Source of the DNA: Dokdonia sp. Dokd-P16
GTDB lineage: Bacteria; Bacteroidota; Bacteroidia; Flavobacteriales; Flavobacteriaceae
Reading direction: 5' to 3'
DNA: 64,000 nucleotides
Assembly (NCBI RefSeq): GCF_003095655.1
Contig: NZ_CP029151.1
Span: 1,673,001 to 1,737,000 of the forward strand
Shown here: positions 844-62,941 of the stretch, one piece after another
How positions within the stretch are numbered: the first letter of the stretch is position 1
Layout of the letters: each line of letters opens with the position of its first letter
Program-made: the position numbers and the translations under genes
The notes under the pieces: model-generated
Seen by the model: the letters and a program-made list of their open reading frames with translations, nothing else
Databases searched by the model: none
Told to the model about the DNA's origin: nothing

Positions 844-859
844 CGCTTTCGCGAAAGCG
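844..859. repeat. Iterated palindrome copy 1 (intergenic)
   Basis: A perfect 16-bp CGCTTTCGCGAAAGCG begins 3 nt after the stop of the CCC-motif gene and about 100 nt before hppD. No T-run follows, so it is not a standard terminator. Confidence 0.95.
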
Positions 860-915
860 TAACAAAAACAAATAATAATCTGCTACGGCAGAAGACTTAT
901 AAATTAGTATTAATA

Positions 916-943
916 GTGAAGTAATAGCTTAAACTAACTTCAC
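916..943. promoter_or_regulatory. Inverted repeat upstream of hppD
   Basis: GTGAAGT (916-922) is mirrored by ACTTCAC (937-943), ending 15 nt before the hppD start. It could be a regulator site or a leader hairpin. No family can be named from the sequence alone. Confidence 0.35.
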
Positions 944-958
944 CGAAAAGTAACAACT

Positions 959-2119
959 ATGAGCAAAGACTTAAAATCTGTAGACTACGGATTAGAAAAA
1001 ATATTTGAAGGAGCGCAGGATTTTCTTCCGCTTCTAGGGACAGACTATGTGGAGTTTTATGTGGGTAATGCAAAACAAGCAGCACACTTTTATAAAACGG
1101 CATTTGGTTTTCAATCATATGCTTACAAAGGTCTTGAGACGGGATCTCGTGATGAGGTGAGTTATGTGCTTAAGCAAGATAAAATACGCATCGTACTAAC
1201 GACGCCACTTAACAGTAAGTCGCCAATAAACGATCACATTGTAAAGCATGGTGATGGTGTAAAGGTGGTTGCTTTATGGGTAGAAGATGCAAGAAGTGCT
1301 TATGAAGAAACTACAAAACGTGGAGCAAAGTCATATTGTGAACCATTTGTAGAGACAGATGAGCATGGAGAAACGGTACGCGCTGGTATTTATACGTATG
1401 GAGAAACGGTACACATGTTTGTAGAACGTAAAAATTACAAAGGAGCGTTTTTACCAGGTTTTAGAAAATGGGAATCAGATTATAATCCAGAGCCTACAGG
1501 TTTAAAATATGTAGATCACATGGTGGGTAATGTGGGCTGGAACCAGATGAATACTTGGGTGAAGTTTTATGAAGAGGTGATGGGGTTTGTAAACTTCTTG
1601 TCTTTTGACGATAAGCAAATTCACACAGAATACTCGGCACTTATGAGTAAGGTGATGAGTAATGGAAACGGTCGTATTAAATTCCCTATAAACGAACCTG
1701 CAGAGGCAGCAAAGAAATCTCAAATAGAAGAATATTTAGATTTTTATGAAGGAGCTGGTGTACAGCACCTCGCACTTGCAACAGATGATATTATCAAAAC
1801 CGTAGCGCAGCTTAAGGCTCGTGGTATCGAGTTTTTACCACCACCACCACAAACGTATTATGATGATATCCCACAAAGACTGGGTGAGCACATGAAGGTG
1901 ATGAAGGAAGATATAGAACGTTTACAAGAGCTTTCTATCCTTGTAGATGCGGATGAAGATGGATATTTACTTCAGATATTTACTAAACCTCTAGAAGACA
2001 GGCCAACCCTATTTTTTGAAATCATACAACGTATGGGAGCAAAAGGATTTGGTGCAGGAAACTTTAAGGCACTCTTTGAGTCTATAGAAAGAGAGCAAGC
2101 ACAGAGAGGAACTTTATAA
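959..2119 (+). CDS. hppD: 4-hydroxyphenylpyruvate dioxygenase
   Basis: This 386-residue, full-length enzyme converts 4-hydroxyphenylpyruvate to homogentisate, the step before HmgA. It has two vicinal-oxygen-chelate halves. The expected iron ligands are present: His187 (VDHMVGN), His270 (VQHLALATDD) and Glu354 (FFEIIQR). The C-terminal block LLQIFTKPLEDRPTLFFE is nearly diagnostic, as is the GFGAGNFKALFESIE tail that closes over the active site. ATG at 959 gives the usual family length. The gene is followed by an iterated palindrome and then a terminator hairpin. Confidence 0.97.
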   Translation: MSKDLKSVDYGLEKIFEGAQDFLPLLGTDYVEFYVGNAKQAAHFYKTAFGFQSYAYKGLETGSRDEVSYVLKQDKIRIVLTTPLNSKSPINDHIVKHGDGVKVVALWVEDARSAYEETTKRGAKSYCEPFVETDEHGETVRAGIYTYGETVHMFVERKNYKGAFLPGFRKWESDYNPEPTGLKYVDHMVGNVGWNQMNTWVKFYEEVMGFVNFLSFDDKQIHTEYSALMSKVMSNGNGRIKFPINEPAEAAKKSQIEEYLDFYEGAGVQHLALATDDIIKTVAQLKARGIEFLPPPPQTYYDDIPQRLGEHMKVMKEDIERLQELSILVDADEDGYLLQIFTKPLEDRPTLFFEIIQRMGAKGFGAGNFKALFESIEREQAQRGTL

Positions 2120-2130
2120 CTTCTTAAGTA

Positions 2131-2146
2131 CGCTTTCGCGAAAGCG
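2131..2146. repeat. Iterated palindrome copy 2 (intergenic)
   Basis: A perfect 16-bp copy, extended to 20 bp by flanking TA/TA (2129-2148), starts 11 nt after the hppD stop. It is separate from the terminator hairpin further downstream. Confidence 0.95.
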
Positions 2147-2182
2147 TAACCCTGTTATTTACACAATTACAATTATTTAACT

Positions 2183-2216: not shown

Positions 2217-2223
2217 GTTATTC

Positions 2224-2231: not shown

Positions 2232-2279
2232 GAATAACAATTGTATTATATGCTTTGTACAACCAAATAACGACCTAAA

Positions 2280-3201: not shown

Positions 3202-4140
3202 ATGAAAAAGCCCATTCAGCCAGACATAGAAAAAATTATCAATCAGCTTGATGATAAGTACGAGAAGATAGATCAAGATCTTGATGATCATCTTGAAGGA
3301 TTACTGCAAAGTAAGCCTATCACTTATTGGGACTATATCCATACGGATGCATTATTAAGCCTGCAGTTACCACGAACGAGCATGCCAGATGAAAATGTAT
3401 TTATCATGTATCATCAGGTTAATGAGTTACTTTTCAAGATGGTGCTATGGGAGATTGAGCAAGTAGCTCATCATCCAAAGCTTACTGTAGATTTTTTTAG
3501 CTCTCGCTTAGGACGTATAAGTCGGTATTTTGATATGCTCACAAGTTCTTTCTCGATTATGCAAGAAGGAATGGATGTCGAGCAGTACATGAAATTTAGA
3601 AAAACCCTTACTCCAGCTAGTGGTTTTCAAAGTGCACAGTATAGAAAAATAGAGTTTGCAAGTACAGATTTAATAAATCTTATAGATAATCGCTTTCGCG
3701 AAAGCATAGACCGCAATACTCCGTACGAACATGCGTTAGAACATCTATATTGGCAAGCCGCCGGCAAAGATTATCATACTGGTAAAAAATCTTATTTGCT
3801 CACAGCCTTTGAAGAGAAGTATAAAAACGACTTTGTAGCGTTTACAAAAGAATATAATACTATAAATTTGTATGCCCGCTTTAAAAGTTTACCTCAAGAA
3901 GTACGTGAGAATCAAAAGTTACGTGATGCTATGCGTCACTACGATTACACAGTAAATGTAACTTGGGTAATGTCTCATTATCATGCTGCAAATCATTACT
4001 TAAATAATGGTGAGAAAGTGGTGGAGGCAACAGGCGGAAGCGAATGGACAAAATATATGCACCCTAAATACCAGCGACGTATTTTCTTTCCAGAAGTCTG
4101 GACTGCAGAAGAGCTAGCAAACTGGGGGCATGATGTATAA
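3202..4140 (+). CDS. kynA: Tryptophan 2,3-dioxygenase
   Basis: A 312-residue heme enzyme that opens the indole ring of tryptophan to N-formylkynurenine, the first step of the kynurenine pathway. Recognisable blocks are YWDYIHTDALLSLQ, the substrate-pocket segment MYHQVNELLFKMVLWEIEQ, LTPASGFQSAQYRKIEF and the C-terminal ATGGSEWTKYM. Length is near the bacterial norm. Residues 164-168 (RFRES) are encoded by an iterated palindrome. The stop overlaps the next start by one base (TAATG), so kynA is translationally coupled to the M23 peptidase gene. Confidence 0.95.
   Translation: MKKPIQPDIEKIINQLDDKYEKIDQDLDDHLEGLLQSKPITYWDYIHTDALLSLQLPRTSMPDENVFIMYHQVNELLFKMVLWEIEQVAHHPKLTVDFFSSRLGRISRYFDMLTSSFSIMQEGMDVEQYMKFRKTLTPASGFQSAQYRKIEFASTDLINLIDNRFRESIDRNTPYEHALEHLYWQAAGKDYHTGKKSYLLTAFEEKYKNDFVAFTKEYNTINLYARFKSLPQEVRENQKLRDAMRHYDYTVNVTWVMSHYHAANHYLNNGEKVVEATGGSEWTKYMHPKYQRRIFFPEVWTAEELANWGHDV
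3691..3706. repeat. Iterated palindrome copy 3 (inside kynA)
   Basis: CGCTTTCGCGAAAGCA, one mismatch to the 16-bp consensus, is read as RFRES at residues 164-168 of kynA. Confidence 0.92.
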
Positions 4141-5464: not shown

Positions 5465-7078
5465 ATGAAAAATATAAACCCAACTACAACAGCAGCTTGG
5501 AAAGCATTAGAAACGCATTACAAGGAAACAAAAGATACGCTATTAGTAGATCTTTTTAAGGATAGTGCTCGTGCAGAAGAGTTTACTATCATTTGGGATT
5601 CTTTATATGTAGATTATAGTAAAAATAGAATCACAACTAAAACTCGGGCTCTTCTTGTGCAACTTGCAGAAGAGGTAGGCTTAAAAGAGGCAATTGATAG
5701 CTATTTTGGTGGGGATGCAATAAACGCAACCGAGGATCGAGCAGTGATGCATACTGCATTACGTGATGAAAAGAGTGATGCCTTTGCTAAGGAAGAGGTG
5801 GATGAGGTAAAAAAGTCAATCGAACTATTTACTGAAAAAGTGATATCTGGTAAGCATAAAGGAGCTACTGGTAAAGAGATTACAGATGTTGTAAATATAG
5901 GAATAGGCGGTTCTGATCTCGGGCCAGTGATGGTTGTTGAGGCATTGCAGTTTTACAAAAACCACTTGACTACTCATTTTATATCAAATGTAGATGGTGA
6001 TCATGTAATGGAGACTATTAAAGATCTTAATCCAGAAACAACGCTTTTTGTAATTGTATCAAAGACTTTTACAACTCAAGAGACATTGAGTAACGCTACA
6101 ACAGTAAGAAAGTGGTTTGTAGACCAACTTGGAGAAGAAGAGGTAGGTAGCCATTTTGTTGCAGTGTCAACAAATGAGGAGGCTATTGCTAGCTTTGGTA
6201 TTTCTTCAGATAACGTATTCCCTATGTGGAACTGGGTGGGAGGACGCTTTTCTCTTTGGAGCTCAGTAGGTTTGTCTATAGCGCTTGCTGTGGGTTATAA
6301 AAACTTTGAAGGCTTACTGCATGGCGCATTTAAAATGGATGAGCATTTTAAAAACACGTCATTTGATCAAAACATTCCAGTGATTACGGCACTCTTAAGT
6401 GTGTGGTATAACAATTTTTATGGTGCAGAGACAGAGGCTGTAATTCCTTACTCTCAGTATTTGCATAGGCTTCCAGCATACTTGCAGCAAGCAATTATGG
6501 AAAGTAACGGGAAAAGTGTAGATCGTAATGGTGATCGCGTTACTTATGAAACTGGAAATATTATTTGGGGCGAACCAGGAACCAACTCACAGCATGCTTT
6601 TTTCCAATTAATACATCAAGGAACAAAGTTAATTCCTGCAGATTTTATTGGTTTTAAAAAATCACTTCACGGTAATCAAGATCACCATGATAAGCTTATG
6701 GCAAATTTCTTTGCACAAACAGAAGCGCTCATGAATGGTAAGACGGTATCTCAAGTGGAGCAGGATTTTGAGGGAAGTACGCTTTCGCGAAAGCGTATAG
6801 AAGAACTTACCCCTTTTAAAGTTTTTGAAGGAAATAAGCCTACTACCACTATTTTAGGGGAGAAGCTTACTCCAGAGAGCTTAGGGTCACTGGTAGCAAT
6901 GTATGAGCATAAAATTTTTGTACAAGGAGTGATATGGAATATATACTCTTATGATCAATGGGGAGTTGAGCTAGGAAAACAACTTGCAAAAAAAGTGCTT
7001 AATGAGTTCAGTACTGGAACAAGTGAAAATCATGATAGTTCTACTAAGAATTTAATGAAATACTATAAAGAAGCGTAG
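5465..7078 (+). CDS. pgi: Glucose-6-phosphate isomerase
   Basis: A 537-residue glycolytic isomerase interconverting glucose-6-phosphate and fructose-6-phosphate. Family signatures are clear: [14 protein letters not shown], the sugar-phosphate [24 protein letters not shown] and [19 protein letters not shown]. Length is close to the E. coli type. An iterated palindrome encodes TLSRKR at about residues 438-443, in the variable stretch before the conserved PFKVFEGN. The gene is last in the kynA-M23-pgi run and is followed by a strong terminator. Confidence 0.97.
6780..6795. repeat. Iterated palindrome copy 4 (inside pgi)
   Basis: A perfect 16-bp copy with TA/TA flanks (20-bp palindrome 6778-6797), read as LSRKR in a variable loop of pgi. 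Confidence 0.95.
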
Positions 7079-11139: not shown

Positions 11140-11155
11140 CGCTTTCGCGAAAGTG
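11140..11155. repeat. Iterated palindrome copy 5 (intergenic, one mismatch)
   Basis: CGCTTTCGCGAAAGTG lies 36 nt after the small membrane protein stop and just before a separate 32-bp terminator palindrome. Confidence 0.9.
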
Positions 11156-11218: not shown

Positions 11219-12295
11219 TTAGTCTACGTATTCTTTCTTGATTACGTAAATATAAACCGGAAAGTGGTCGCTGTAGCCACCCGTATATCCACCATTTGCA
11301 AAGCTTCTGTAAGGATATCCATTATAACGACCCTTAGGGTTGCTCAAGTAGCTTTTGTTGTAAATACCAGCCTTATAATACCTAAAAGAGGTGTAATCCT
11401 CATTAAGTAACGGAGCACTTATAATTATCTGGTCAAAGAGGTTCCACCCATCACGATACGCTAGCGTGCCTATGCCCTTTTTAAACATAGATTCCATTGG
11501 GTTGTAGAGTGCTTTATCTCTTACTTTTTTAATCTTGCGATGTGTTTGTAATACCTTTTTTACACTAGCATTTGTTGGGTCGTCATTAAGATCTCCCATG
11601 ATAATAATCTTTGCATAAGGATCATTGCTTTGTAAGCTATCTGTAATTTTCTTCGTAAGTGAAGCTGCGTCCATACGTTTTTTTCTACTCTTTGCTTCTC
11701 CACCAGACCGAGACGGCCAGTGGTTTACGATGATATGTATCATGTCACCATCGAGTAGGCCAGATACCAGAAGCTGATCCCTTGTATACTTACGTTTTGA
11801 TGGATTATCAATCTCGTAAATGAGTAATTCATGTTTACTAGTAAATAATGGCTTAAATAGCCTCTTTTGATACAACAGTGCTACGTCTATCCCTCTTCTG
11901 TCTGGAGAATCATAATGCACAATACCGTAATCTCTCGGCAGTAATTGTGGGTCATTAGCTAGCGCTTCTACGGTTTTTCTGTTTTCAATTTCTGCGAGTC
12001 CTATAATCGCTGGGCTGTTTTTTGTGAAGTCCTTTCCTATATCGGCAATTACTCGTGCGATATTTTTCACCTTGTCTTGATATATCGTTTCGGTCCAATG
12101 ATCCTTACCTTCAGGAGTGCGATCATCATCATAAGTGATAGGGTCATTGATGGTGTCAAACAGATTTTCTACGTTGTAAAATGCGATAGTGTGGGCTCTG
12201 TATTTATTGGTTTGTTGCGCTTTCGCGAAAGCGTAAAGACAAAACAATATCACAAGTATTGAGCATCTCTTAGTTTTTAATTTTATTGAAAGCAT
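11219..12295 (-). CDS. Secreted endonuclease/exonuclease/phosphatase (EEP) family protein, first paralogue
   Basis: About 358 residues from the ATG at 12295. This start gives a proper signal peptide (MLSIKLKTKRCSILVILFCLYAFAKAQQ); the longer frame to 12334 adds an unlikely leader. EEP-fold motifs follow: FYNVENLFDT, GLAEIENR, HYDSPDRRGIDVALLY, VNHWPSRSGGEAKS, IIMGDLNDDP and a C-terminal YSDHFPVYIYV. These are the metal and catalytic segments of Mg-dependent phosphodiesterases or phosphatases. Substrate is unknown; export points to extracellular phosphoesters or nucleic acids. The palindrome encodes AFAKA at the signal peptide end. A second paralogue lies at 16716-17699, on the far side of a TonB receptor/DUF5689 pair. 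Confidence 0.88.
   Translation of the reverse strand: MLSIKLKTKRCSILVILFCLYAFAKAQQTNKYRAHTIAFYNVENLFDTINDPITYDDDRTPEGKDHWTETIYQDKVKNIARVIADIGKDFTKNSPAIIGLAEIENRKTVEALANDPQLLPRDYGIVHYDSPDRRGIDVALLYQKRLFKPLFTSKHELLIYEIDNPSKRKYTRDQLLVSGLLDGDMIHIIVNHWPSRSGGEAKSRKKRMDAASLTKKITDSLQSNDPYAKIIIMGDLNDDPTNASVKKVLQTHRKIKKVRDKALYNPMESMFKKGIGTLAYRDGWNLFDQIIISAPLLNEDYTSFRYYKAGIYNKSYLSNPKGRYNGYPYRSFANGGYTGGYSDHFPVYIYVIKKEYVD
12218..12233. repeat. Iterated palindrome copy 6 (inside first EEP gene)
   Basis: A perfect 16-bp copy, read as AFAKA across the end of the predicted signal peptide. Confidence 0.95.
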
Positions 12296-16715: not shown

Positions 16716-17699
16716 TTAGTCAGATCTTGTAGATAGAATGCTATACACAGGAAAATGATCACTATAACCACCTAGATATCTTTTTCCAGCATAAGTGCGA
16801 AAGGGTGTTCCTTTAAATTTACCATCATATTCAGTGAGGAAAAAGTCATTGTAAATATCTGACTTCTCGTAAAGAAGTGTGTTTTCGTGTAGCTGTACAA
16901 AATTGTTCGAAAAGATAATCTGATCAAAAATGAACCACTCAAATCTATAATTTAAGCTTCCTTCATATCTTGTTCCTAAGTACAGCATCGGGTTGTAAAA
17001 CTCCGTTTTAACGAGGTTGTTTTTTACGCTTTCACTGTGTGGCCCGTCATTAAAATCGCCCATAATGATAATCTTCACTTTAGGGTCTTCATTCATGAGT
17101 TTGTCAATAACTTCCCTATTGCGCTGTGCTGCTGTAATGCGCTTTTGTGAGGTTTCATTCTCACCAGATCTTCGGGAAGGCCAGTGATTTACTAGTATGT
17201 GCACAGGATTTCCTAAAAGTTCTCCTTGAACATAAAGAATGTCACGTGTATAGTCTCTGCCACCTTCATCGGCTTCTAGGTAGAGTGTGATGGGTTCACT
17301 TGCCGTGACTTTAAAGTCTGCTTTTTTGTATAATAGAGCAACGTCAATACCGCGCTCATCTGGGGAGTCATAATGAACAATATCATAGCCTTCATCTTTA
17401 AGATTATCTGTCGCAATAAGAGACTCTAGTACGGATCTATTTTCCACTTCGGCAACGCCAAGGAGAGAAGGTGAGGTCTTAGTGTCATCCTTCCCTATGT
17501 TTGAGATAACTTTTGATAGTTTGGCTATTTTCTTATTAAACTTATAGCTATTCCACTCCTTAAAACCGTTCGGTGTGAAGTCGTCGTCTAGCGTTTCAGG
17601 GTTGTTTGTCGTGTCAAAAAGATTTTCTAGGTTGTAAAAGCCTACTGCACATTGTATTTTTTCTTGTTGCGCTTTCGCGAAAGCGGAATCATCCTCCAT
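16716..17699 (-). CDS. EEP family protein, second paralogue, without a visible signal peptide
   Basis: A 327-residue paralogue of the 11219-12295 protein, with the same order of motifs: FYNLENLFDT, GVAEVENR, HYDSPDERGIDVALLY, VNHWPSRRSGENETS, IIMGDFNDGP and YSDHFPVYSI. It begins MEDDSAFAKAQQEKIQC, and an in-frame TAG at 17712-17714 blocks upstream extension, so no signal peptide can be encoded. The protein may be cytoplasmic, or a secretion signal has been lost. The palindrome encodes AFAKAQQ exactly where the first paralogue has it. Substrate is unknown. It converges with the DUF5689 gene and diverges from hflX. Confidence 0.85.
   Translation of the reverse strand: MEDDSAFAKAQQEKIQCAVGFYNLENLFDTTNNPETLDDDFTPNGFKEWNSYKFNKKIAKLSKVISNIGKDDTKTSPSLLGVAEVENRSVLESLIATDNLKDEGYDIVHYDSPDERGIDVALLYKKADFKVTASEPITLYLEADEGGRDYTRDILYVQGELLGNPVHILVNHWPSRRSGENETSQKRITAAQRNREVIDKLMNEDPKVKIIIMGDFNDGPHSESVKNNLVKTEFYNPMLYLGTRYEGSLNYRFEWFIFDQIIFSNNFVQLHENTLLYEKSDIYNDFFLTEYDGKFKGTPFRTYAGKRYLGGYSDHFPVYSILSTRSD
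17670..17685. repeat. Iterated palindrome copy 7 (inside second EEP gene)
   Basis: A perfect 16-bp copy encoding residues 6-10 (AFAKA) of the second EEP protein, at the position equivalent to copy 6. Confidence 0.95.
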
Positions 17700-22145: not shown

Positions 22146-23493
22146 TTTATTTTCAGAGTTTGACGCAGTTTCGGCAAAGGCTTTCAAGCAAAAAATACAG
22201 TTTGACCTCAAGGGTGCAGACTACAATGAGACGCTTGTCTGGCAAAGTCTAGAAGGAATACATGTAAAGCCTTTTTATCACAGTGATGAAATAAAAGAGA
22301 CAGTAGCTGTTCAATCTCCACAAAAATGGTTTATAGGAGAGAAAATATTTATAGTAGACGCGGCTAAGTCTGCACAAACGGCAAATAAAGCTATTGACAA
22401 CGGAGCAGAGGCTATCTACTTTCAGGCAGAAACTTTGTTTGATCTTGAGCTGTTATTTGAAGGTTTAAAGCACAAAGAAGTCCCTCTTTATTTTGAGCTC
22501 AGTTTTCTTGATGAAGATTTTTATAAACGTTTTCACGCTTTCGCGAAAGCGTATCATATCACCACAAAGCTTGATATCATTAATCATCTTGCACTTGATG
22601 GTAACTGGTATCACAACTTGCAAAAGGATCACGATATAGTGAGTAGTTTGCTACAGGGAGAAGAAAGTAAACTTACTGTAGACACCACCTTATATCAAAA
22701 TGCTGGTGCCACGATGGTGCAGCAATTGGCTTACGGTATCGCTCATCTTACCGAATATTTAAATCATTGTGAGAAAGAGAAGCTTAGTATAAATATTGTC
22801 ACTTTTGAAGTCGCGGTAGGAACTAACTACTTTTTTGAAATTGCAAAGCTAAGGGCGCTCAGAAAGCTTGCCGGTGTAGTATTATCTGCATTTAATTATA
22901 CGGATGCAACTATTAACATTATAGCGCACCCATCAAGACGCAATAAAACAATTTACGATTATAATATAAACATGCTGCGCACCACGACAGAGTGTATGAG
23001 TGCTGTGCTAGGTGGCGCAGACTGGGTGGTAAATATGCCGTATGATGCATTGTATCACAAGACTAATAACTTTGGACAGCGCATTTCTCGTAACCAGCTC
23101 ATTGTTCTCAAAGAGGAAAGCTATTTTGACGTGGTTCAAAACCCAGCAGATGGTTCTTATTATGTTGAAGAACTTACCACACAACTTGCAGAAAAGGCAC
23201 TAGCGCTTTATAAAGATATAGAGACGCAAGGAGGGTTTTTGAGACAGCTTAAAGAAGGAACCATACAACGAAAGATAAAAGAAAGTGCTGCAAAGGAGCA
23301 GGCTAAGTTTGATGAAGGAGAGTTGATTCTTTTGGGGACAAATAAGCATCCTAATCCAAAAGATGTAATGAAAGATGAGCTAGAGATTTACCCATTTGTA
23401 AAAATCAACCCGCGTAAAACATTGCTGGAGCCTATAATTGCAAAACGCCTAGCTGAGTCATTAGAACAAGAACGTATTAAAGCAGAAAAGTAG
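22135..23493 (+). CDS. mutA: Methylmalonyl-CoA mutase small subunit
   Basis: About 452 residues from the ATG at 22135 (MKTNLFSEFDAVSAKAFKQ). The open frame back to 22105 is a by-product of the divIC overlap. It is a TIM-barrel subunit without the C-terminal cobalamin domain, as expected for the beta subunit of the heterodimer. Segments such as TTECMSAVLGGADWVVNMPYD and NPADGSYYVEELT parallel the large subunit. With ScpA it interconverts methylmalonyl-CoA and succinyl-CoA. The palindrome encodes AFAKA near residue 135. Confidence 0.92.
   Translation: MKTNLFSEFDAVSAKAFKQKIQFDLKGADYNETLVWQSLEGIHVKPFYHSDEIKETVAVQSPQKWFIGEKIFIVDAAKSAQTANKAIDNGAEAIYFQAETLFDLELLFEGLKHKEVPLYFELSFLDEDFYKRFHAFAKAYHITTKLDIINHLALDGNWYHNLQKDHDIVSSLLQGEESKLTVDTTLYQNAGATMVQQLAYGIAHLTEYLNHCEKEKLSINIVTFEVAVGTNYFFEIAKLRALRKLAGVVLSAFNYTDATINIIAHPSRRNKTIYDYNINMLRTTTECMSAVLGGADWVVNMPYDALYHKTNNFGQRISRNQLIVLKEESYFDVVQNPADGSYYVEELTTQLAEKALALYKDIETQGGFLRQLKEGTIQRKIKESAAKEQAKFDEGELILLGTNKHPNPKDVMKDELEIYPFVKINPRKTLLEPIIAKRLAESLEQERIKAEK
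22536..22551. repeat. Iterated palindrome copy 8 (inside mutA)
   Basis: A perfect 16-bp copy read as AFAKA in the context FHAFAKAYHI. Confidence 0.95.
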
Positions 23494-30891: not shown

Positions 30892-30907
30892 CGCTTTCGC
30901 GAAAGCG
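30892..30907. repeat. Iterated palindrome copy 11 (between sucA and odhB)
   Basis: A perfect 16-bp copy ending 14 nt before the odhB ATG. As a hairpin it would sit next to the odhB ribosome-binding region, so it could affect odhB translation. Confidence 0.95.
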
Positions 30908-34225: not shown

Positions 34226-34237
34226 CTTTCGCGAAAG
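34226..34237. repeat. Iterated palindrome copy 12 (inside kinase, 12-bp core)
   Basis: CTTTCGCGAAAG is exact; one outer base is changed (CCTTTCGCGAAAGC). Read as AFAKG between TPR helices. Confidence 0.85.
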
Positions 34238-38900: not shown

Positions 38901-40329
38901 TAAGTTTTACATCATGCTTTCGCGAAAGCGTAATTAAAACAGGCATCACACGATCTTCATCTTCTTGCCCGTGACGCATGATCTCAACATAAAGGTCGTC
39001 ACCAAATTGTTCTTTCCACCAAATAAGGGCCTCTTCGGCTTGTTTTTCTCCTACGTTAAGAATCTTACTTGGCACTTCACCATATAGATTTCCGGTAAGT
39101 ACAATAAGATCTTCTTTGTACTGTTCAATAACTTGCTTGTCTATACGAGGAACATAATAAAAACCATCTGTATAAGCTATAGAAGCCATTTTACAGAGGT
39201 TTTGGTATCCATTTTTATTTTTGGCTAAAATGACAATCTGGTATCCATTGTCTTTTTGGCTCTTGTTTTTGTGATCAACACATACATTAAACTCACAACC
39301 TATGATGGCTTTAAGTGGTACATGCTCTTCTGCTTCTCCTGCTTCTGTGAGTTTTGCATTTTCCGCTTTCGCGAAAGCGTTATGACTTTTTACCGCTTTT
39401 GTAAAGTGAAAAGCCCCCATCATGTTACCCATGTCTGTCATAGCGACAGCAGGCATTTTATGTAGTGCAGCGGCTTTTACAATATCTTGAACGCTCGCAG
39501 TAGATTGTAATATAGAGAACTGAGAGTGGTTATGAAGGTGAGCAAACTTTACATCAGAAAGTTGTTCTTTATTTTCTTCTATCTCTGCCTTAGAAATTTC
39601 TGGAGTGTCATCTTGAGCAGCGAGCGCTTGAGCAATTTTTGCAGAAGCTTTTTTAAGATTTATATGCTTAAGCCCTATAAACTCAATAGGCTGCGGATTA
39701 GATTGAGAGAATCTTTCAAAATAATCTGGCGCAACGTCTAGCTCTTCTTTTGTGTAAACTCGCTGGCGTATAAGCTCTAGAAAGCAACGAGTAGTTGCCT
39801 CCACATCTGCAGTAGCATTGTGTGCTTCTCCAAATCCTTCTCCAAATAGGTGTTTGTGTAATTCTGTAAGCGTAGGTAATTTAAATTTACCACCACGTCC
39901 TCCAGGTAGCTGGCACAATGTCGCTGTTTTTTCTGTACAAGTGTCTAGCACTGGTAACTCTTGAAGATCATTACCTATGTTAAGTCTGTGAAACTCGGCT
40001 CCCATGATATTTGTATCAAAACCAACATTCTGACCTACAACGTACTTTGATTTTGAAAGTGCAATATTAAATTTTGAGAGTACTTCAGAAAGTTCAATTC
40101 CGTCTCTTTCGGCAAGTGCTGTGGAGATGCCGTGTATGCGCTCTGCATCATAAGGAATATCAAATCCATCTGGCTTGATAAGATAATCTTGATGCTCTAT
40201 GACGTTACCCATCTCATCATGTAACTGCCAAGCGATCTGAATCGCTCTAGGCCAGTTATCTGAGTCTGTAAGTGGAGCATTCCAGTTTTTGGGAAGTCCG
40301 GTGGTTTCGGTGTCAAAAATAAGGTACAT
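35938..40329 (-). CDS. dnaE: DNA polymerase III alpha subunit with N-terminal exonuclease domain
   Basis: A 1463-residue replicative polymerase. Residues 1-190 form a DnaQ/epsilon-like 3'-5' exonuclease (FDTETTGLP; GFDTNIMGAEFHR; HNATADVEATTRC). A PHP domain follows (FAHLHNHSQFSILQS near residue 265), then the polymerase core (GPGRGSAAGSVAAYC; MPDIDIDFDDEGRGRV; GIFQYESPGMQ) and a C-terminal OB-fold (LTFGGVISDVQHRV). Fusing proofreading and polymerase activities is known for Bacteroidetes DnaE. Two palindromes fall inside: AFAKA in the PHP domain (near 317) and LSRK (near 466). Confidence 0.96.
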   Translation of the reverse strand: MYLIFDTETTGLPKNWNAPLTDSDNWPRAIQIAWQLHDEMGNVIEHQDYLIKPDGFDIPYDAERIHGISTALAERDGIELSEVLSKFNIALSKSKYVVGQNVGFDTNIMGAEFHRLNIGNDLQELPVLDTCTEKTATLCQLPGGRGGKFKLPTLTELHKHLFGEGFGEAHNATADVEATTRCFLELIRQRVYTKEELDVAPDYFERFSQSNPQPIEFIGLKHINLKKASAKIAQALAAQDDTPEISKAEIEENKEQLSDVKFAHLHNHSQFSILQSTASVQDIVKAAALHKMPAVAMTDMGNMMGAFHFTKAVKSHNAFAKAENAKLTEAGEAEEHVPLKAIIGCEFNVCVDHKNKSQKDNGYQIVILAKNKNGYQNLCKMASIAYTDGFYYVPRIDKQVIEQYKEDLIVLTGNLYGEVPSKILNVGEKQAEEALIWWKEQFGDDLYVEIMRHGQEDEDRVMPVLITLSRKHDVKLIASNNTFYIDKSDADAHDVLLCVKDGEKVATPKGRGRGYRFGLPNDEYYFKSADEMKTLFADVPEAILNVQEVVNKIESYELARDVLLPAFDIPEEFVSPEDAIDGGKRGENAFLKHLVYEGAKKRYGEELSEEVIERLDFELDVIEKTGYPGYFLIVEDFIREARNMDVSVGPGRGSAAGSVAAYCLWITNIDPMKYDLLFERFLNPDRVSMPDIDIDFDDEGRGRVMQYVIDKYGANQVAQIITYGTMAAKSSIRDTSRALDLSLGDADRIAKLIPTMSKLRKIFGKTDAELRSAFRSDDLPKVQELITLEQADNLEGQMLRQARQLEGSVRNTGIHACGVIITPSDITNFVPVALAKDSDLYVTQFDNSVVEEAGLLKMDFLGLKTLTLIKDTVKLVKYRHDVDLDPENFPLDDEKTYELFQRGDTVGIFQYESPGMQKHMQSLKPTVFEDLIAMNALYRPGPMEYIPSFVRRKHGEEEIEYDLPAMEEYLKETYGITVYQEQVMLLSQKLADFTKGEADVLRKAMGKKQIAVLDKMKPKFIEQASAKGHDPEKLEKIWKDWEAFAAYAFNKSHSTCYAWIAYQTAYLKAHYPAEYLAAVLSNNMNDIKQVTFFMEEAKRMGLEVLGPDVNESFRKFTVNDNGAVRFGMGAVKGVGTGAVATIVENRKDGPYKSVFDFARRVDLRAANKKAFESLALAGGFDEMDGDTHRAQFFNHDGDGITFLEKAVKYGARYQENENSSQVSLFGESSEVQIPEPEVPPCEEWGTMEKLKREKEVVGVYISGHPLDDFKTEMETFCNATVAHFSQMESFINRELTFGGVISDVQHRVSKNGKGWASFIVEDFTDTFEFRMFGEEYLKMRHFLIPNSFIHAKVFIKDGFTNRETGRKSDPRTQFNSIQQLQDVMETNAKKLTINIDINEVAEARIEEIKNILDLHVGEAKLHFQVFEPLEKLFVKMPSKRMKVKICQELLDSLEENSVHYKLN
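38915..38930. repeat. Iterated palindrome copy 13 (inside dnaE)
   Basis: TGCTTTCGCGAAAGCG, one mismatch at the outer base, read as LSRK in ITLSRKHDVKL. Confidence 0.92.
39364..39379. repeat. Iterated palindrome copy 14 (inside dnaE)
   Basis: A perfect 16-bp copy read as AFAKA in HNAFAKAENAKL, in a probable loop of the PHP domain. It is 449 bp from copy 13, the closest pair in the window. Confidence 0.95.
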
Positions 40330-43423: not shown

Positions 43424-44185
43424 ATGTCTTTAAAACCTTTTCAATTTAAAGAATTTACGGTAGCTCAAGATCGCTGCGCTATGAAAATAGGCACAGACGG
43501 CGTATTACTTGGCGCTTGGACCTCCGTTGCTCAGTATCCAGATAGCATTTTAGATATAGGCACAGGTACTGGTGTTATTGCTTTAATGCTAGCGCAACGT
43601 AGTGATGCCATGACGGTAGACGCTATAGAGCTAGATGATAGCGCTTATGAGCAGGCTGCAGATAACTTTGAAAATAGTGTGTGGGGAGACAGACTCTTTT
43701 GTTATCATGCACATTTATACGAATTTGCCGCAGAGATAGATGATGAGTACGACCTCATTGTGTGTAATCCACCTTTTTATATGGAGACGCTCAATGATGA
43801 GTCCACAGCGTTGCAGCGTTCACGTTCAATTAAAGATGGAGCGGCTATGGAAGCTAGAGAACAAGCGCGTTTAGAAGAGTCAATGCCTTTTGAGTTACTT
43901 GTAGGAGCCGTAGCAAAGTTACTTTCAGAAGATGGGGCGTTTAATGTTATTATACCTTTTGAAAGGGAAGAGGACTTTATATTGTTATGCTCTCGTGCAG
44001 GTTTATTTCCATCTAGAATTACACGAGTAAAGGGGAGCCCAACGGCGCCTATTAAAAGGAGTTTAATGGAGTTCCGCTTTCGCGAAAGCGTACCAAAAAC
44101 CACAGAACTTACTATAGAGCATAAACGTCACGATTATACAGATGACTACATTTCTCTAGTTAAAGACTTCTATCTCAAAATGTAG
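43424..44185 (+). CDS. trmN6: tRNA1(Val) (adenine(37)-N6)-methyltransferase (YfiC type)
   Basis: A 253-residue SAM-dependent methyltransferase. The start MSLKPFQFKEFTVAQDRCAMKIGTDGVLLGAW is characteristic, the SAM motif is DIGTGTGVIALMLAQ, and the adenine-N6 catalytic motif is N115-P-P-F118. It methylates A37 of valine tRNA in the family's model case. The start codon directly follows the rimM stop. The palindrome encodes RFRES near residue 218, close to the C-terminus. Confidence 0.92.
   Translation: MSLKPFQFKEFTVAQDRCAMKIGTDGVLLGAWTSVAQYPDSILDIGTGTGVIALMLAQRSDAMTVDAIELDDSAYEQAADNFENSVWGDRLFCYHAHLYEFAAEIDDEYDLIVCNPPFYMETLNDESTALQRSRSIKDGAAMEAREQARLEESMPFELLVGAVAKLLSEDGAFNVIIPFEREEDFILLCSRAGLFPSRITRVKGSPTAPIKRSLMEFRFRESVPKTTELTIEHKRHDYTDDYISLVKDFYLKM
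44075..44090. repeat. Iterated palindrome copy 15 (inside trmN6)
   Basis: A perfect 16-bp copy read as RFRES (EFRFRESVPK), about 32 residues before the C-terminus. Confidence 0.95.
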
Positions 44186-48841: not shown

Positions 48842-50011
48842 TTATTCCCAACTGTAATTTTTTGCGCGGCCTTGTTTTTTTATAGCATCTATTAGTGCAT
48901 TTCTCAATTCGTTATCTGATGTGTCTGTTTTAGAATCAACAAACTCTTGTCGTTTTTTATTAAGCGATGCAATTTCTTGTTGTATTGTCTTGCGTTGCTT
49001 TTTCTTCTTAGAAACGTACTCTTTTATCTCCTTTTCGGTTTTCCCTTTGAGTTCTTGAGGTAAACTAGTTTCTTTAAGTTCTACTATGATTTCTTCATTT
49101 TCTTCCATAGCATCTACGAGGTCCCAGCTAGTATTTTTATATAGTCTAGAGCTTTTGCTTACTGCTCGCTTTACAGCATTTGCATTTCCATATGACTGTG
49201 CATTGCTGTCTTGACTACTTTGTAAGGCCATTTTAGAAGGGGCTAGGTTGCCATAACCTACATAGGTTTTGTTAAGTTCTTCATTCTTACGTAAGATTTT
49301 ATCATCGTATGGAGATGGGATGTGCACTGTTGCTTTATCACTATTTATAGCAATATAATCTCCTTGTGTAAGGGATGCGCCATCTTTCCAATTTGTGTTG
49401 AGCCCTTCATTATAATCACCACAAAAAATTGTGTTTATAGTAACATCCTTTCCGCAGGCATTGCTGGCAGCATCTTGGTAACGCACTGGACCTTGATCAA
49501 AAGGTTCATTACCAGCTATAAAAATAAGATTGAGATCGTTTTTATTTTTACCCCACTCTAATTGATTGAGCGAACTTTGAATCACATTACCGCAGTACTC
49601 GTTACCTCCATTTGTTGTCAGAGAAAAGAGGTTTTTAGAGATTTCATCAAGATCTGTGCTAAAAGCACTCACCATACGTATATATCCTTCTCTTGCATTG
49701 AGCCTGTCATTTCCATATTCATAAAGTGCGATTTTAAGGTCTGGACGGCTTTCATCTCCGCACTTAGCTTCGGCTAGTTCGTTGACTAGCTCCCACAATT
49801 GTGCTCGTGCTTGATCTATAAGACCATCCATACTATTAGAAGTGTCTAAGAGTAGTGCTACTTTAATGGTATTTTGAACGGGATCTTTTGTAAATGATGG
49901 TATATGATTTTTTTCCGCTTTCGCGAAAGCGTACTCATTCCCATGTAAGTTTGTTGCGAGTAGTCCATTGTGCATAGCTAGTGTAATTGCTAGGATAAAA
50001 AGAGTTTTCAT
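48842..50011 (-). CDS. Exported von Willebrand factor A domain protein
   Basis: About 389 residues from ATG 50011, which opens a signal peptide (MKTLFILAITLAMHNGLLA); the longer frame to 50050 lacks one. A VWA domain follows (about 48-245) with MIDAS motif DTSNS (ALLLDTSNSMDGL) and FIAGNEPF. The C-terminal part is a lysine-rich helical region (KGKTEKEIKEYVSKKKKQRKTIQQEIASLNKKRQEF). The palindrome encodes AFAKA right after the signal peptide. Function is unknown; metal-dependent protein binding in the periplasm is likely. Confidence 0.85.
   Translation of the reverse strand: MKTLFILAITLAMHNGLLATNLHGNEYAFAKAEKNHIPSFTKDPVQNTIKVALLLDTSNSMDGLIDQARAQLWELVNELAEAKCGDESRPDLKIALYEYGNDRLNAREGYIRMVSAFSTDLDEISKNLFSLTTNGGNEYCGNVIQSSLNQLEWGKNKNDLNLIFIAGNEPFDQGPVRYQDAASNACGKDVTINTIFCGDYNEGLNTNWKDGASLTQGDYIAINSDKATVHIPSPYDDKILRKNEELNKTYVGYGNLAPSKMALQSSQDSNAQSYGNANAVKRAVSKSSRLYKNTSWDLVDAMEENEEIIVELKETSLPQELKGKTEKEIKEYVSKKKKQRKTIQQEIASLNKKRQEFVDSKTDTSDNELRNALIDAIKKQGRAKNYSWE
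49916..49931. repeat. Iterated palindrome copy 16 (inside VWA gene)
   Basis: A perfect 16-bp copy read as AFAKA (EYAFAKAEKN), just after the signal peptide. Confidence 0.95.
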
Positions 50012-50219
50012 TTGCTGATTTTTATGATGAATAGAGTTCAAAATTATCATTATGAAAAGTCAAATTTTATGTAGAATGAGGGAATAGGACGTATGAATGA
50101 GTAAACGACCTTAGATGATTAGTAAAAGGAACGTTTTTGTACGTAAAAGCATGAAAATAGGCGTGTTTGCTTCTTTTGTGATTTTAAGAAGCTATTTTTT
50201 TAGAGTAAGTTTGAATATA

Positions 50220-53165: not shown

Positions 53166-53972
53166 CTAAAAATCAAGTTTCTTGATAGTGATAATAGGTG
53201 GAGGTGTTACGCTTTCGCGAAAGCGTACTAACACTTTTTCTAAAATACTGGGATCCCCATTTGTAAATAATTGATGATTTCCAGTCGTTGCAGTATGCAA
53301 GGCTTTTATTTCTGTAAGAACAGACTTAGTCTGGCGAGCAACGGCTAGTCCAGAATCTATGATGGTAACTTCTTTAGGTAATAATTCAGTTAGAAGTGGG
53401 ATGAGATATGGATAGTGACTACATCCTAAAACGAGATAATCTATTTCTTGGGCAATCATTGGGTCTACATATGACTTAAGAAGTTTTTTTAAAACCGTAC
53501 TCTCAAGATCTCCCTTCTCTATAAGTGGTACGAGGCCTTCTCCTATAACTTCTATAACTTTAGTTCCCTGTGTCCACTTTTCTGAAGTATCTTGAAATAG
53601 AGTGCTGTTTAGCGTTCCCTTGGTTGCTAGAATACCAATGGTCTTATTTTTAGAATTGAGTGCCGCAGGCTTAATAGCTGGTTCAATGCCTATAAATGGG
53701 ATGTCATAATTTTTCCTTAGGTAGTCAATGGCGTTTGTGGTTGCGGTATTGCAAGCAACAACAATAATTTTTGCGCCTAGTTGTATAAGCTTTTCTGTGT
53801 TTTTTACGGATAAAGTAATTATTTCCTCTTTTGATTTTGCTCCATAAGGTGCATGCTTACTATCGGCAAGGTATATGGTGTTTTCATACGGTAGGTGTGT
53901 GACTACTTCTTTCCAGATGGAAGTGCCGCCTATACCACTATCAAAAAGTCCAATGTTACCTTTGTATTGCAT
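53166..53972 (-). CDS. murI: Glutamate racemase
   Basis: A 268-residue cofactor-independent racemase making D-glutamate for peptidoglycan. GLFDSGIGGTSIW, the first catalytic Cys74 (VVACNTATTN) and second catalytic Cys184 (VLGCSHYPYL) are present. The palindrome encodes RFRES near residue 250, in the C-terminal tail (VLVRFRESVTPPP). It lies downstream of the ompH genes on the same strand, behind a terminator. Confidence 0.96.
   Translation of the reverse strand: MQYKGNIGLFDSGIGGTSIWKEVVTHLPYENTIYLADSKHAPYGAKSKEEIITLSVKNTEKLIQLGAKIIVVACNTATTNAIDYLRKNYDIPFIGIEPAIKPAALNSKNKTIGILATKGTLNSTLFQDTSEKWTQGTKVIEVIGEGLVPLIEKGDLESTVLKKLLKSYVDPMIAQEIDYLVLGCSHYPYLIPLLTELLPKEVTIIDSGLAVARQTKSVLTEIKALHTATTGNHQLFTNGDPSILEKVLVRFRESVTPPPIITIKKLDF
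53210..53225. repeat. Iterated palindrome copy 17 (inside murI)
   Basis: A perfect 16-bp copy with TA/TA flanks, read as RFRES about 15 residues from the MurI C-terminus. Confidence 0.95.
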
Positions 53973-59760: not shown

Positions 59761-59776
59761 CGCTTTCGCGAAAGCG
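59761..59776. repeat. Iterated palindrome copy 18 (intergenic)
   Basis: A perfect 16-bp copy with TA/TA flanks in the 155-bp gap between nadK and the DUF6089 gene, 57 nt beyond the nadK stop. Confidence 0.95.
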
Positions 59777-60724: not shown

Positions 60725-61381
60725 TTAGATATTAAGGTATTTTTCTAGATATTGAGAGCGCTCTCTTAAGTCTGTAAGGAAGGTGTCTTCATGGTGACTA
60801 GATACCACGTTATAGCTATACCTTCTAAAGGCTGCGAGAATATCATTAAAATTTGATCTCCCTATTTTTACTGAAATTTCGGCAACGTCATTCTCTATTC
60901 TAGAGATAAACATTCCCCAGATTTTCCCATCATTAGACTCTACAATCTGACTTATTTCGCTAAAAGAATAATCTTGGATTCCTTTTTCTATAATCACCAC
61001 GCTTCCTGGCTCACTTATAAAAGGAGTGCTATTAAAGAAGCTCATTACATCTTCTAGTTCATAGTAACCTAGATAGGTGTTTTTTTCATCTAGTACTGGC
61101 ATCATGTTGCAGCCGTGTCTTGCAAAAGTCTCGAGTACATCTAGCCAGTTTGTATCATAACGCACAAAAAATTGCTCATAGCCATGGCTGTATTCACTTA
61201 TAGGAATACCTGCGTCTAGGCAATGTGTGTCATTTTCAGGTAGTGATCCTACATAAACACCTTCTCGTTCTATAGGAACATGAGAATAGGTAGTTTGACT
61301 AAAAATAGACTGTACTTCTCCTATGTTCTGCTTTTCAGAAACTGGAGAAATATCATTTATAATGAAATCTGTTAACGTCAT
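60725..61381 (-). CDS. CBS domain protein
   Basis: A 218-residue cytosolic protein with two CBS motifs (about 5-65, VSEKQNIGEVQSIFSQTTYSHVPIEREGVYVGSLPEND; about 75-125, TNWLDVLETFARHGCNMMPVLDEKNTYLGYYELEDVM) and an ACT-like C-terminal part (VVIIEKGIQDYSFSEISQIVESNDGKIWG). Such proteins may sense nucleotides. It is the first gene of a pair with nadK, suggesting a link to NAD or adenylate status, which is inference. It is divergent from pdxJ. Confidence 0.85.
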   Translation of the reverse strand: MTLTDFIINDISPVSEKQNIGEVQSIFSQTTYSHVPIEREGVYVGSLPENDTHCLDAGIPISEYSHGYEQFFVRYDTNWLDVLETFARHGCNMMPVLDEKNTYLGYYELEDVMSFFNSTPFISEPGSVVIIEKGIQDYSFSEISQIVESNDGKIWGMFISRIENDVAEISVKIGRSNFNDILAAFRRYSYNVVSSHHEDTFLTDLRERSQYLEKYLNI

Positions 61382-61426
61382 ACTGCAAAATAATGAAAAA
61401 ATAACCGCCTAGCAGCGGTCTCTTTG

Positions 61427-61434
61427 TATTTTTG
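61427..61434 (+). promoter_or_regulatory. TAnnTTTG promoter box of pdxJ
   Basis: TATTTTTG lies 25 nt before the pdxJ ATG. An ACCGC/GCGGT inverted repeat (61404-61419) sits just upstream in the divergent region. Confidence 0.55.
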
Positions 61435-61459
61435 TGATATCAAATAATACCATATTGCT

Positions 61460-62173
61460 ATGACAAAATTAAGTGTAAACATAAATAAGGTTGCCACATT
61501 GCGTAATGCAAGAGGAGGTAATGTTCCAGATCTATTAAAAGTAGCTAGTGACCTTGAGAAAATGGGTGCTCAAGGAATAACTATTCATCCTCGTCCAGAT
61601 GAGCGTCACATAAGATATCAAGATGCGAGAGACCTTGTAGATGTAGTTACTACAGAGTTTAATATAGAAGGAAATCCTATCCAGAAATTCATAGACCTAG
61701 TTCTCGAGACTAAGCCTACACAAGTTACCCTAGTTCCAGATGCTGTAGATGCTATTACTAGTAATGCTGGCTGGGATACCATTAAACATAAAAGTTTCTT
61801 GCAAGAAGTAATTCAAGAGTTTAAAGAAGTAGGAATACGCACCTCAATTTTTGTAGATCCAGTGCTAGAGATGGTAGAAGGAGCTAAGGAAACAGGCGCA
61901 GACCGCATCGAGCTGTATACGGAGTCCTATGCAGATGGTTACGTGCTTAATAAGGAAGAAGCTATAAAACCATTTATCGCTGCTGCTTTTCATGCAAGTG
62001 ATATAGGAATAGGGATTAATGCAGGGCACGATTTGTCACTAGATAATATTGAATATTTTCATAATAGTATTCCAGATTTGCTAGAGGTTTCTATAGGTCA
62101 TGCATTGATGGCAGAGTCTTTATATCTAGGTTTTGAAACAGTGGTAGCTTCGTATCTCAAAAAACTTCAATAG
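61460..62173 (+). CDS. pdxJ: Pyridoxine 5'-phosphate synthase
   Basis: A 237-residue TIM-barrel enzyme making pyridoxine phosphate in the DXP-dependent vitamin B6 route. LSVNINKVATLRNARGGNVPDLL, GITIHPRPDERHI, NIEGNPIQ, VTLVPDA, GINAGHDLSLDNI and EVSIGHALMAESL are signature stretches. The alpha/beta hydrolase begins 3 nt after its stop. Confidence 0.96.
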   Translation: MTKLSVNINKVATLRNARGGNVPDLLKVASDLEKMGAQGITIHPRPDERHIRYQDARDLVDVVTTEFNIEGNPIQKFIDLVLETKPTQVTLVPDAVDAITSNAGWDTIKHKSFLQEVIQEFKEVGIRTSIFVDPVLEMVEGAKETGADRIELYTESYADGYVLNKEEAIKPFIAAAFHASDIGIGINAGHDLSLDNIEYFHNSIPDLLEVSIGHALMAESLYLGFETVVASYLKKLQ

Positions 62174-62176
62174 ATC

Positions 62177-62941
62177 ATGTTGCATTCTAATATCATAGGA
62201 GAAGGTGAACCGCTCATCATATTGCACGGTTTTCTAGGGATGGGTGATAACTGGAAAACACTAGCAAAGCAATTTGCAGGAGACGGTTTTCAAGTGCATC
62301 TTATAGACCAGCGTAATCATGGGCGTAGTTTCCATAGTGATGCCTTTAGCTATGAATTAATGGTAGAAGATCTCAAGTCTTATTGTGTAGCAAATGGACT
62401 TGAAGAATTCCATTTGCTTGGACACTCAATGGGAGGTAAGGTGGCTATGCTGTATGCTGCCACCCATCCAGATATGGTAAAGAAATTAATCATAGCAGAT
62501 ATAGGTGTAAAAGAATATCCGCAACATCACCAGATTATCCTTGAGGGACTAACTGCCTTGTCAAATGATGTTCAGGCAATGACGAGTCGTTCAGGAGCAG
62601 ATGATTTTCTTTCAAGATATATTACAGATGATGGTACGAGAATGTTTTTGCTCAAAAACCTTTATTGGAAAGAAAAGGGTGTGCTAGGTTTTAGAATGAA
62701 CCTCAAAGCACTTATAGAAAATATAGAACAAATAGGGAAGGCACTTCCCGTAGGAGCTTCATACGAAGGAGAGGTGCTTTTTTTAAGAGGAGATAGGTCT
62801 AATTATATTCTTGATGAGGATGAAAAAGGTCTTTATAACGCTTTCGCGAAAGCGCAATTAATTACCATTTCAAATGCTGGTCACTGGCTTCATGCAGAAA
62901 ATCCTAAAGATTTTTACAAAGAAGTGATAAATTTTTTATAA
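62177..62941 (+). CDS. Alpha/beta hydrolase, YbfF-like esterase
   Basis: A 254-residue hydrolase. HGFLGMGDNWKTLA carries the oxyanion loop, Ser84 the nucleophile (LLGHSMGGKVA) and His236 the catalytic base (NAGHWLHAENP). IDQRNHGRS is typical of YbfF-type acyl-CoA/ester hydrolases. The palindrome encodes NAFAKAQ near residues 221-227, before the His motif. Co-transcribed with pdxJ. Substrate is unknown. Confidence 0.88.
   Translation: MLHSNIIGEGEPLIILHGFLGMGDNWKTLAKQFAGDGFQVHLIDQRNHGRSFHSDAFSYELMVEDLKSYCVANGLEEFHLLGHSMGGKVAMLYAATHPDMVKKLIIADIGVKEYPQHHQIILEGLTALSNDVQAMTSRSGADDFLSRYITDDGTRMFLLKNLYWKEKGVLGFRMNLKALIENIEQIGKALPVGASYEGEVLFLRGDRSNYILDEDEKGLYNAFAKAQLITISNAGHWLHAENPKDFYKEVINFL
62839..62854. 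repeat. Iterated palindrome copy 19 (inside alpha/beta hydrolase)
   Basis: A perfect 16-bp copy read as AFAKA (YNAFAKAQLI), the last copy in the window. Confidence 0.95.

What the first reader, a model, noticed from the sequence alone, without database searches (positions are those of the whole stretch)
844..62854. Highly iterated 16-bp palindrome across a core-genome window
CGCTTTCGCGAAAGCG or a near copy occurs 19 times: 14 perfect over 16 bp, 17 with the exact 14-bp core GCTTTCGCGAAAGC, all 19 with CTTTCGCGAAAG. For equal base use, one given 14-mer is expected far less than once (64000/4^14, about 0.0002), and less in AT-rich DNA. Copies are spread across the whole window, about one per 3.4 kb, without clustering. 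Four are extended to 20 bp by TA flanks. Known analogues are HIP1 in cyanobacteria, Rickettsia palindromic elements and DNA-uptake words, but this word matches none I recognise. It contains TCGCGA, so a methyltransferase, nucleoid protein or repair recognition role is conceivable.
Basis: partly seen in the sequence, partly recalled or inferred. Interest (0 to 1): 0.85.

Follow-up and report, generated by a model that had tools for sequence, protein, structure and literature searches.

The report
Genome-wide palindromic DNA tag in Dokdonia
A few related marine bacteria carry one exact palindromic DNA word hundreds of times, spaced a few thousand letters apart and protected from mutation even inside genes, which suggests that an unidentified cell component reads it as a tag on the DNA.

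Summary
Confirmed, and larger than reported. The window lies in a Dokdonia-like genome (Flavobacteriaceae) with 808 exact copies of GCTTTCGCGAAAGC in 3.62 Mb; Markov models expect about 0.003-0.008. High counts occur in 5 of 299 family genomes searched (three genera) and, of 395 phylum genomes, only in the own. Places are kept: 36 of 45 aligned sites are identical between two Dokdonia genomes at 78% identity; third codon positions inside the word are 93% identical against 56% background, so selection acts on the DNA. Copies are five-fold enriched between genes, seldom lie within 1 kb of each other, and G is avoided on the 3' side of each strand for about 20 nt. Some temperate phages and a copper-efflux cluster carry copies. 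Two methyltransferase families, an extra ParB and RecC do not track the word. Best reading: a self-DNA tag read by an unidentified symmetric factor, working like DNA uptake sequences; chromosome-structuring, Chi-like and HIP1-like readings remain open. The 12-mer is in no held paper; ten papers with the 10-mer were seen as listings.

The parts
845..858 (.). copy, exact 14-mer; intergenic, just after a stop codon
   Evidence: ORF ends at 840
2132..2145 (.). copy, exact 14-mer; intergenic, after ORF 959-2119 (4-HPPD by eye, name recalled); 20-bp form
3692..3705 (.). copy, exact 14-mer; in ORF 3202-4140; kept in G300
6781..6794 (.). copy, exact 14-mer; in ORF 5465-7078; 20-bp form; absent at the aligned place in G300 (5 differences)
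11141..11154 (.). copy with one mismatch (one-armed); intergenic; G300 has the perfect form
12219..12232 (.). copy, exact 14-mer; near the start of a minus-strand ORF
17671..17684 (.). copy, exact 14-mer; near the start of ORF 16716-17699 (-)
22537..22550 (.). copy, exact 14-mer; in ORF 22105-23493; absent at the aligned place in G300
25761..25774 (.). copy, exact 14-mer; in methylmalonyl-CoA mutase gene
28914..28927 (.). copy, exact 14-mer; in 2-oxoglutarate dehydrogenase E1 gene
30893..30906 (.). copy, exact 14-mer; intergenic; absent at the aligned place in G300 (gapped)
34225..34238 (.). copy with one mismatch (one-armed); in ORF 33369-35066 (-); absent at the aligned place in G300 (5 differences)
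38916..38929 (.). copy, exact 14-mer; in DNA polymerase III alpha gene; kept in G300
39365..39378 (.). second copy in DNA polymerase III alpha gene; absent in G300 (7 differences)
44076..44089 (.). copy, exact 14-mer; in ORF 43424-44185
49917..49930 (.). copy, exact 14-mer; in ORF 48842-50050 (-)
53211..53224 (.). copy, exact 14-mer; in ORF 53166-53972 (-); 20-bp form
59762..59775 (.). copy, exact 14-mer; intergenic; 20-bp form
62840..62853 (.). copy, exact 14-mer; in ORF 62177-62941

Best explanation
SHOWN: a sequence element with core TTTCGCGAAA, nearly always with at least one GC arm (usually two: GCTTTCGCGAAAGC; between genes in Dokdonia about TTACGCTTTCGCGAAAGCGTAA), and flanks in which G is avoided on the 3' side of each strand, strongly for about 20 nt and fading by about 100. 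It is kept at fixed places by selection on the DNA itself, at one exact 14-mer per 3.6-7.7 kb in the motif-rich genomes, in a few Flavobacteriaceae genera, and it also occurs on some temperate phages and in a copper-efflux cluster. INFERRED: the dyad symmetry means that a symmetric (dimeric) sequence-specific factor reads it. The set of habits (intergenic bias, extended flank, arm dialects between genera, few close neighbours, strong conservation, some gains too divergent for single point mutations) fits best a self-DNA tag used in exchange of homologous DNA: fragments that carry it are taken up or recombined preferentially, so it works like a DNA uptake sequence. The reading factor is not identified and uptake is not shown.
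For: Number against chance; narrow range; 36 of 45 aligned sites identical at 78% identity against 7% (coding) and 11% (non-coding) of control 14-mers; third codon positions 92 of 99 identical against 27,695 of 49,111; 5 of 6 sites kept at 71% identity (G206) and 3 of 3 alignable of 6 at 72% (G307); 28 of 60 and 27 of 56 sites intergenic in 9-10% of the DNA; few gaps under 1 kb; flank bias also in coding and in phage copies. PMC2397512 (passages) reports much the same set for Neisseria DUS: 71% exactly kept, core-genome and intergenic bias, unique sites too divergent for point mutation. PMC7965970 (section 16): Riemerella columbina, placed by its authors in Flavobacteriaceae, prefers its own DNA in transformation; no word was identified. 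PMC7811141 (passages): the H. influenzae uptake model uses a full-length USS of 31 bp, i.e. more than a short core.
Against: Known DUS and USS are not palindromes (recalled). Density is lower than the ~1 kb USS spacing. Phages have no obvious reason to carry uptake tags; the five examined for it are temperate, so chromosome residence may explain it. Competence genes and DNA uptake in Dokdonia were not tested. 5 of 10 G300-only sites have a near copy in G000, i.e. ordinary point turnover. Second codon positions in the word are no better kept than background (95 of 105 against 93%), as expected for a DNA-level signal but also showing that not all copies are kept. Core-genome bias was not shown here: 4 sites in 26 kb of unaligned against 51 in 158 kb of aligned DNA is suggestive only.
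Confidence: 0.36

Rival explanations
1. Chromosome-organising site: a dimeric nucleoid-associated protein binds every few kb and anchors or bounds loops, so sites are selected for even coverage.
For: Palindrome with two half-sites and an alternative half-site in one-armed copies; close neighbours depleted; copies present in sampled stretches both near and far from the terminus presumed from GC skew.
Against: No extra ParB-family protein in 7 of 7 motif-rich genomes; no gap at the presumed terminus as for Noc/SlmA (recalled behaviour; sampled stretches only); a bound-protein site does not readily explain a strand-asymmetric G-poor flank of about 20 nt.
Confidence: 0.25
2. Chi-like recombination or repair site: the word stops or retunes a DNA-end resection enzyme in both directions, and the G/T-rich 5' flank of each strand favours RecA loading.
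For: Density near that of E. coli Chi (recalled, about 1 per 4.6 kb); 5' side of each strand C-poor in coding and intergenic copies, with A-C exchanges doubled among outward-flank substitutions; some temperate phages carry it. PMC3763553 (passages) says RecA prefers TGG repeats that resemble Chi; its reference list holds titles for and against GT-rich islands around Chi (codon usage as the counter-argument).
Against: RecC (PF04257) was found in 0 of 18 genomes, motif-rich or poor (of 14 control genomes it rings in E. coli only), so it is not RecBCD-Chi; AddAB was not searched; known Chi words are short and not palindromic (recalled).
Confidence: 0.15
3. HIP1-like by-product of methylation-directed mismatch repair (Elhai model).
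For: Same class of observation: a GC-rich palindrome iterated hundreds of times, patchy among relatives (PMC4390886: abstract, section 6, section 18 part 1).
Against: PF00145 absent from 5 of 7 and PF01555 from 5 of 7 motif-rich genomes, both from 4; TCGCGA outside the core is rare (17 of 88 in 264 kb), unlike a 6-bp MTase target; extended flanks. Other MTase families not searched.
Confidence: 0.1
4. Mobile palindromic repeat (REP/RAYT or MITE).
For: High copy number, intergenic bias; between genes several species-specific sites lie in gapped or poor alignments.
Against: About half of the copies lie inside genes, in all three frames; orthologous places are kept; in genes the species-specific sites align without a gap at the word. 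RAYT genes were not searched.
Confidence: 0.03
5. Transcription terminator or regulon operator.
For: Slight excess between convergent genes (14 of 55 intergenic sites against about 8 expected by length) and deficit between divergent genes (10 against about 16), counted from the listings; RNA hairpin of 6-8 bp, with z below -2 in 2 of 6 folded examples.
Against: Half of the copies are in coding DNA; no T tract; arms not complementary beyond the first positions; z between -1.3 and -0.4 in the other 4 of 6.
Confidence: 0.05

Closest known systems
DNA uptake sequences (Neisseria DUS, Pasteurellaceae USS)
   Same: Hundreds of copies, exact core with extended weak flank, lineage dialects (recalled for DUS), intergenic bias, strong conservation, some gains too divergent for point mutation (PMC2397512 and PMC7811141, passages)
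   Different: Palindromic; about one per 3.6-7.7 kb rather than about 1 kb; no uptake shown; reader protein unknown
HIP1 and alternate HIPs of cyanobacteria
   Same: Highly iterated GC-rich palindrome, patchy among relatives (PMC4390886)
   Different: 10-14 bp core plus biased flanks instead of 8 bp; no common PF00145 or PF01555 methyltransferase; lower density
Chi sites
   Same: Density and G/T-rich 5' flank (recalled)
   Different: Palindromic and longer; RecC absent
Noc/ParB/SlmA binding sites
   Same: Palindromic operators spread over a chromosome (recalled)
   Different: Many more copies (808 against tens, recalled), half inside genes, no extra ParB

Membership tests
DNA uptake sequence | over-representation far beyond chance, lineage-specific | tested here: met
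DNA uptake sequence | stringent conservation at orthologous places | tested here: met
DNA uptake sequence | preferential uptake or transformation of tagged DNA | not testable with these tools
   needs experiment
DNA uptake sequence | competence machinery with a cognate receptor | not tested
   no search made for competence genes
HIP | short palindrome iterated hundreds of times | tested here: met
HIP | cognate DNA methyltransferase in the genomes | tested here: inconclusive
   PF00145 and PF01555 are not shared by the motif-rich genomes; other MTase families not searched
Chi of RecBCD | RecC present | tested here: not met
   0 of 18 genomes
Noc/ParB operators | extra ParB-family protein in carriers | tested here: not met
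   exactly one ParB_N in 7 of 7 motif-rich genomes
REP/RAYT or MITE | insertion units, mostly outside genes | tested here: not met
   half in genes, ungapped there; intergenic cases less clear
intrinsic terminator | hairpin followed by T tract | tested here: not met

The most novel reading that the evidence does not exclude
A previously undescribed genome-tagging system: a single factor, perhaps spread horizontally among some Flavobacteriaceae, reads a palindromic word whose flanks are tuned strand by strand, and DNA that lives in these hosts (chromosome, temperate phage, metal-resistance cluster) has been selected to carry it every few kilobases, with different positions in different genera.
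Probability: 0.35. Interest if true: 0.87.

Novelty: new variant of a known kind. Interest (0 to 1): 0.74.

Why it matters
Words iterated this often usually mark a DNA-processing system (uptake, recombination, repair, methylation; recalled). Here the word is longer, palindromic, under strong DNA-level selection even in genes such as DNA polymerase III alpha, confined to a few genera and carried by some phages, while the usual suspects that were tested do not track it. Dokdonia species are cultured (recalled), so pulldown, methylome and transformation tests are practical.

Tried and rejected
PF00145 and PF01555 methyltransferases as common cause: not shared. Extra ParB: none in motif-rich genomes. 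RecC: absent from all 18 searched. Hairpin extension by complementary arms: no. Mutational (deamination) origin of the flank bias: weakened, because A-C exchanges are in excess (0.224 against 0.113) and A-G in deficit (0.172 against 0.259), C-T slightly up (0.283 against 0.231), and sites found only in G000 have the same G fraction as shared ones (0.075, n=6, against 0.076, n=36). Replichore bias of one-armed copies: forward excess on both sides, no switch (14F/9R and 19F/6R), with an origin only presumed from GC skew. HPPD was dropped as a species-tree marker because two divergent versions occur; ParB was used instead. All-or-none turnover was my first impression (7 of 9 non-identical sites differ by 5-12 bases), but one search shows near copies for 5 of 10 G300-only sites, so it is not a rule.

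Literature: the word itself was searched (12-mer, 0 papers; 10-mer, 10 papers seen as listings, titles on other subjects, none opened); 'Dokdonia' with 'palindrom' gave 5 papers, seen as listings. Searches were topic searches. Passages of PMC5217627 (spaced motifs in prokaryotes) hold no mention of Dokdonia or Flavobacteria.
Full report
OBSERVATION. The 14-mer GCTTTCGCGAAAGC occurs 17 times exactly and twice with one mismatch in the window; 14 of 19 are perfect over 16 bp and 4 over 20 bp, by the listing. The window lies at 1,673,001-1,737,000 of a single-contig genome of 3,623,447 bases that holds 808 exact copies and none of the reversed control. Order 1-4 Markov models trained on 264 kb with the word masked expect 0.003-0.008 copies. 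ORF 959-2119 (4-hydroxyphenylpyruvate dioxygenase by eye, name recalled) matches three uncultured Dokdonia at 95-99% and a fourth at 88%, so the organism is a Dokdonia or very near it; its own record is not named.

RANGE. Of 299 genomes of the family, 61 have at least one copy, but only five are rich: G000 808, G206 857 (same genus), G010 578 and G242 664 (one other genus), G190 408 (a third); the other 56 have 1-19. Of 11 genomes reached through named loci, four Dokdonia have 570-905, Leeuwenhoekiella blandensis 10, Altibacter lentus 6, a 'Cytophagaceae' MAG 89, and four (Ulvibacter antarcticus, Aureitalea, Xanthomarina, Aequorivita sinensis) 0 (the MAG may be a mixed bin, not checked). Of 395 genomes of the phylum 22 have any copy, all but the own 6 or fewer; the reversed control word also has single hits in some genomes. 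On a ParB tree of 16 genomes the five motif-rich ones need three changes of state (200 bootstrap trees: 3-3), but 54 of 500 label shuffles are as low, inner support is weak, and the well-supported branches do not rule out one origin. Between genera the positions differ where they can be compared: 0 of 2 alignable G190 sites coincide with G000 and none of 8 G242 sites could be aligned.

ANATOMY. In 662 kb of G000, 172 cores TTTCGCGAAA lie far enough from stretch ends to be scored: 125 have a GC on both sides, 47 on one side, none on neither; single exceptions with neither occur in G190 (1 of 38) and in a phage. One-armed copies have their own preference on the other side (outward A, T, G, T, G, A as commonest bases). 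In intergenic copies the consensus reaches TTACGCTTTCGCGAAAGCGTAA; G242 leans to CCGC...GCGG arms. Reading outward from CTTTCGCGAAAG on either strand, G is 0.02-0.08 at positions 4-14 except one (0.13), background 0.19, and returns to background by about 100 nt. At positions 5-12 beyond the 14-mer G is 0.07-0.09 in coding and 0.03-0.05 in intergenic copies. The flank bases themselves are not conserved (77% against 79% background identity), only their composition. G190 (about 45% GC) shows a weaker flank.

SELECTION. Comparing 264 kb of G000 with 200 kb of Dokdonia G300 (78% identity), 45 of 60 sites are in aligned DNA: 36 identical, 2 where G000 has a one-mismatch form and G300 the perfect one, 7 absent with 5-12 differences; 15 unaligned, partly because the G300 stretch ends. 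Control 14-mers are identical in 7% (coding) and 11% (non-coding). In the other direction, of 56 G300 sites 34 are shared, 10 unaligned, 2 too far rearranged to judge, 10 only in G300, of which 5 have a near copy in G000. Inside coding copies, first, second and third codon positions are identical in 96 of 104, 95 of 105 and 92 of 99; background 87%, 93% and 56%. In G206, 5 of 6 sites match G000 at 71% identity; in G307, 3 of 6 are alignable and all 3 match at 72%; between G010 and G242, 4 of 4 G010 sites match at 92%. All three frames are used, frame 0 (Ala-Phe-Ala-Lys-Ala) most, 36 of 61. The element is therefore kept as DNA.

PLACEMENT. A simple gene caller of my own puts 28 of 60 and 27 of 56 copies between genes, in 9-10% of the DNA. 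Gaps under 1 kb: 1 observed against 10.9 expected (G000, 264 kb) and 2 against 13.2 (G300); G300 gap CV 0.50 against 0.97, none of 4000 simulations as low; G000 CV 0.76, P 0.016. The null is uniform and does not model the intergenic preference. Over the first 500 kb of G000 the overall CV is not low (1.07), because long empty stretches occur, but gaps under 1 kb are 6% against 19%. One 18.9-kb gap is nearly all one giant ORF; one sampled 20-kb stretch without any core carries efflux and Schlafen-type genes, plausibly accessory.

MOBILE DNA. I chose 12 records with good flanks or several sites; counts are. Eight of them, 247 kb, hold 38 cores, one per 6.5 kb, with the same flank bias. They were picked because they carry the word, so this does not tell how common it is in phages; and they are not all independent (G312, G313 and G320 share a 4,480-bp gap and gene sizes; G316 and G319 share positions). 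Of six records whose larger proteins I scanned, four show virion genes: G313 terminase, portal and head, G311 head and tail sheath, G319 terminase and portal, G315 head protease; G318 and G314 matched mostly phage families of unknown function. Five of five examined for it carry an integrase or Mu-like transposase (G313, G318, G315, G311, G319). In several motif-poor genomes some copies sit in a copper-efflux gene cluster, probably a mobile island though mobility was not shown. Between versions 74-86% identical two positions (7434 and 8367 of L141) are kept in most, others decay by point changes; L143, L144 and L147 are 92-95% alike and not independent. G190 has a related cluster at 70-75%.

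MECHANISM. Shown: DNA-level selection, dyad symmetry, strand-asymmetric flanks, avoidance of close neighbours, narrow range. Inferred: a symmetric reader. The uptake-tag reading is preferred because passages of PMC2397512 list much the same habits for Neisseria DUS, and because Riemerella columbina, placed in Flavobacteriaceae by its authors, prefers its own DNA (PMC7965970, section 16). It is not a demonstrated DUS: no uptake, no receptor, and a palindrome would be new for that class as far as I recall. Chromosome-structuring and Chi-like readings fit the placement and the flank respectively. The methylation reading lost ground with two MTase families but is not closed. The 12-mer is in no held paper; papers holding the 10-mer were seen as listings only; most subscription papers are not in the library.

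Noticed in passing
G000:C1 about 1,777,600-1,795,900 (L137): Single ORF of about 6,092 codons without any copy of the word in an 18.9-kb gap; the 264-kb sample holds CATCATTATC-type repeats, perhaps here but not localised.
   Followed up: partly
L141 3641-16606 and relatives L143, L144, L147, L150, L160: Copper-efflux cluster (RND pump, OEP, multicopper oxidase, metal ATPase, ArsP-type permease) shared by several Flavobacteriaceae genera and carrying copies of the word in otherwise motif-poor genomes.
   Followed up: partly
G101, G215, G201, G306: Extra ParB_N proteins of about 600 aa; among the 18 genomes searched only in these motif-poor ones.
   Followed up: no
L384 1124-4009 and L391 12300-15185: Mu-like transposable phages (transposase plus DNA transposition protein) that carry copies of the word.
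   Followed up: partly
G305 (record of L070): A 'Cytophagaceae' MAG with 89 copies, between rich and poor genomes; mixed bin or a further carrier.
   Followed up: no
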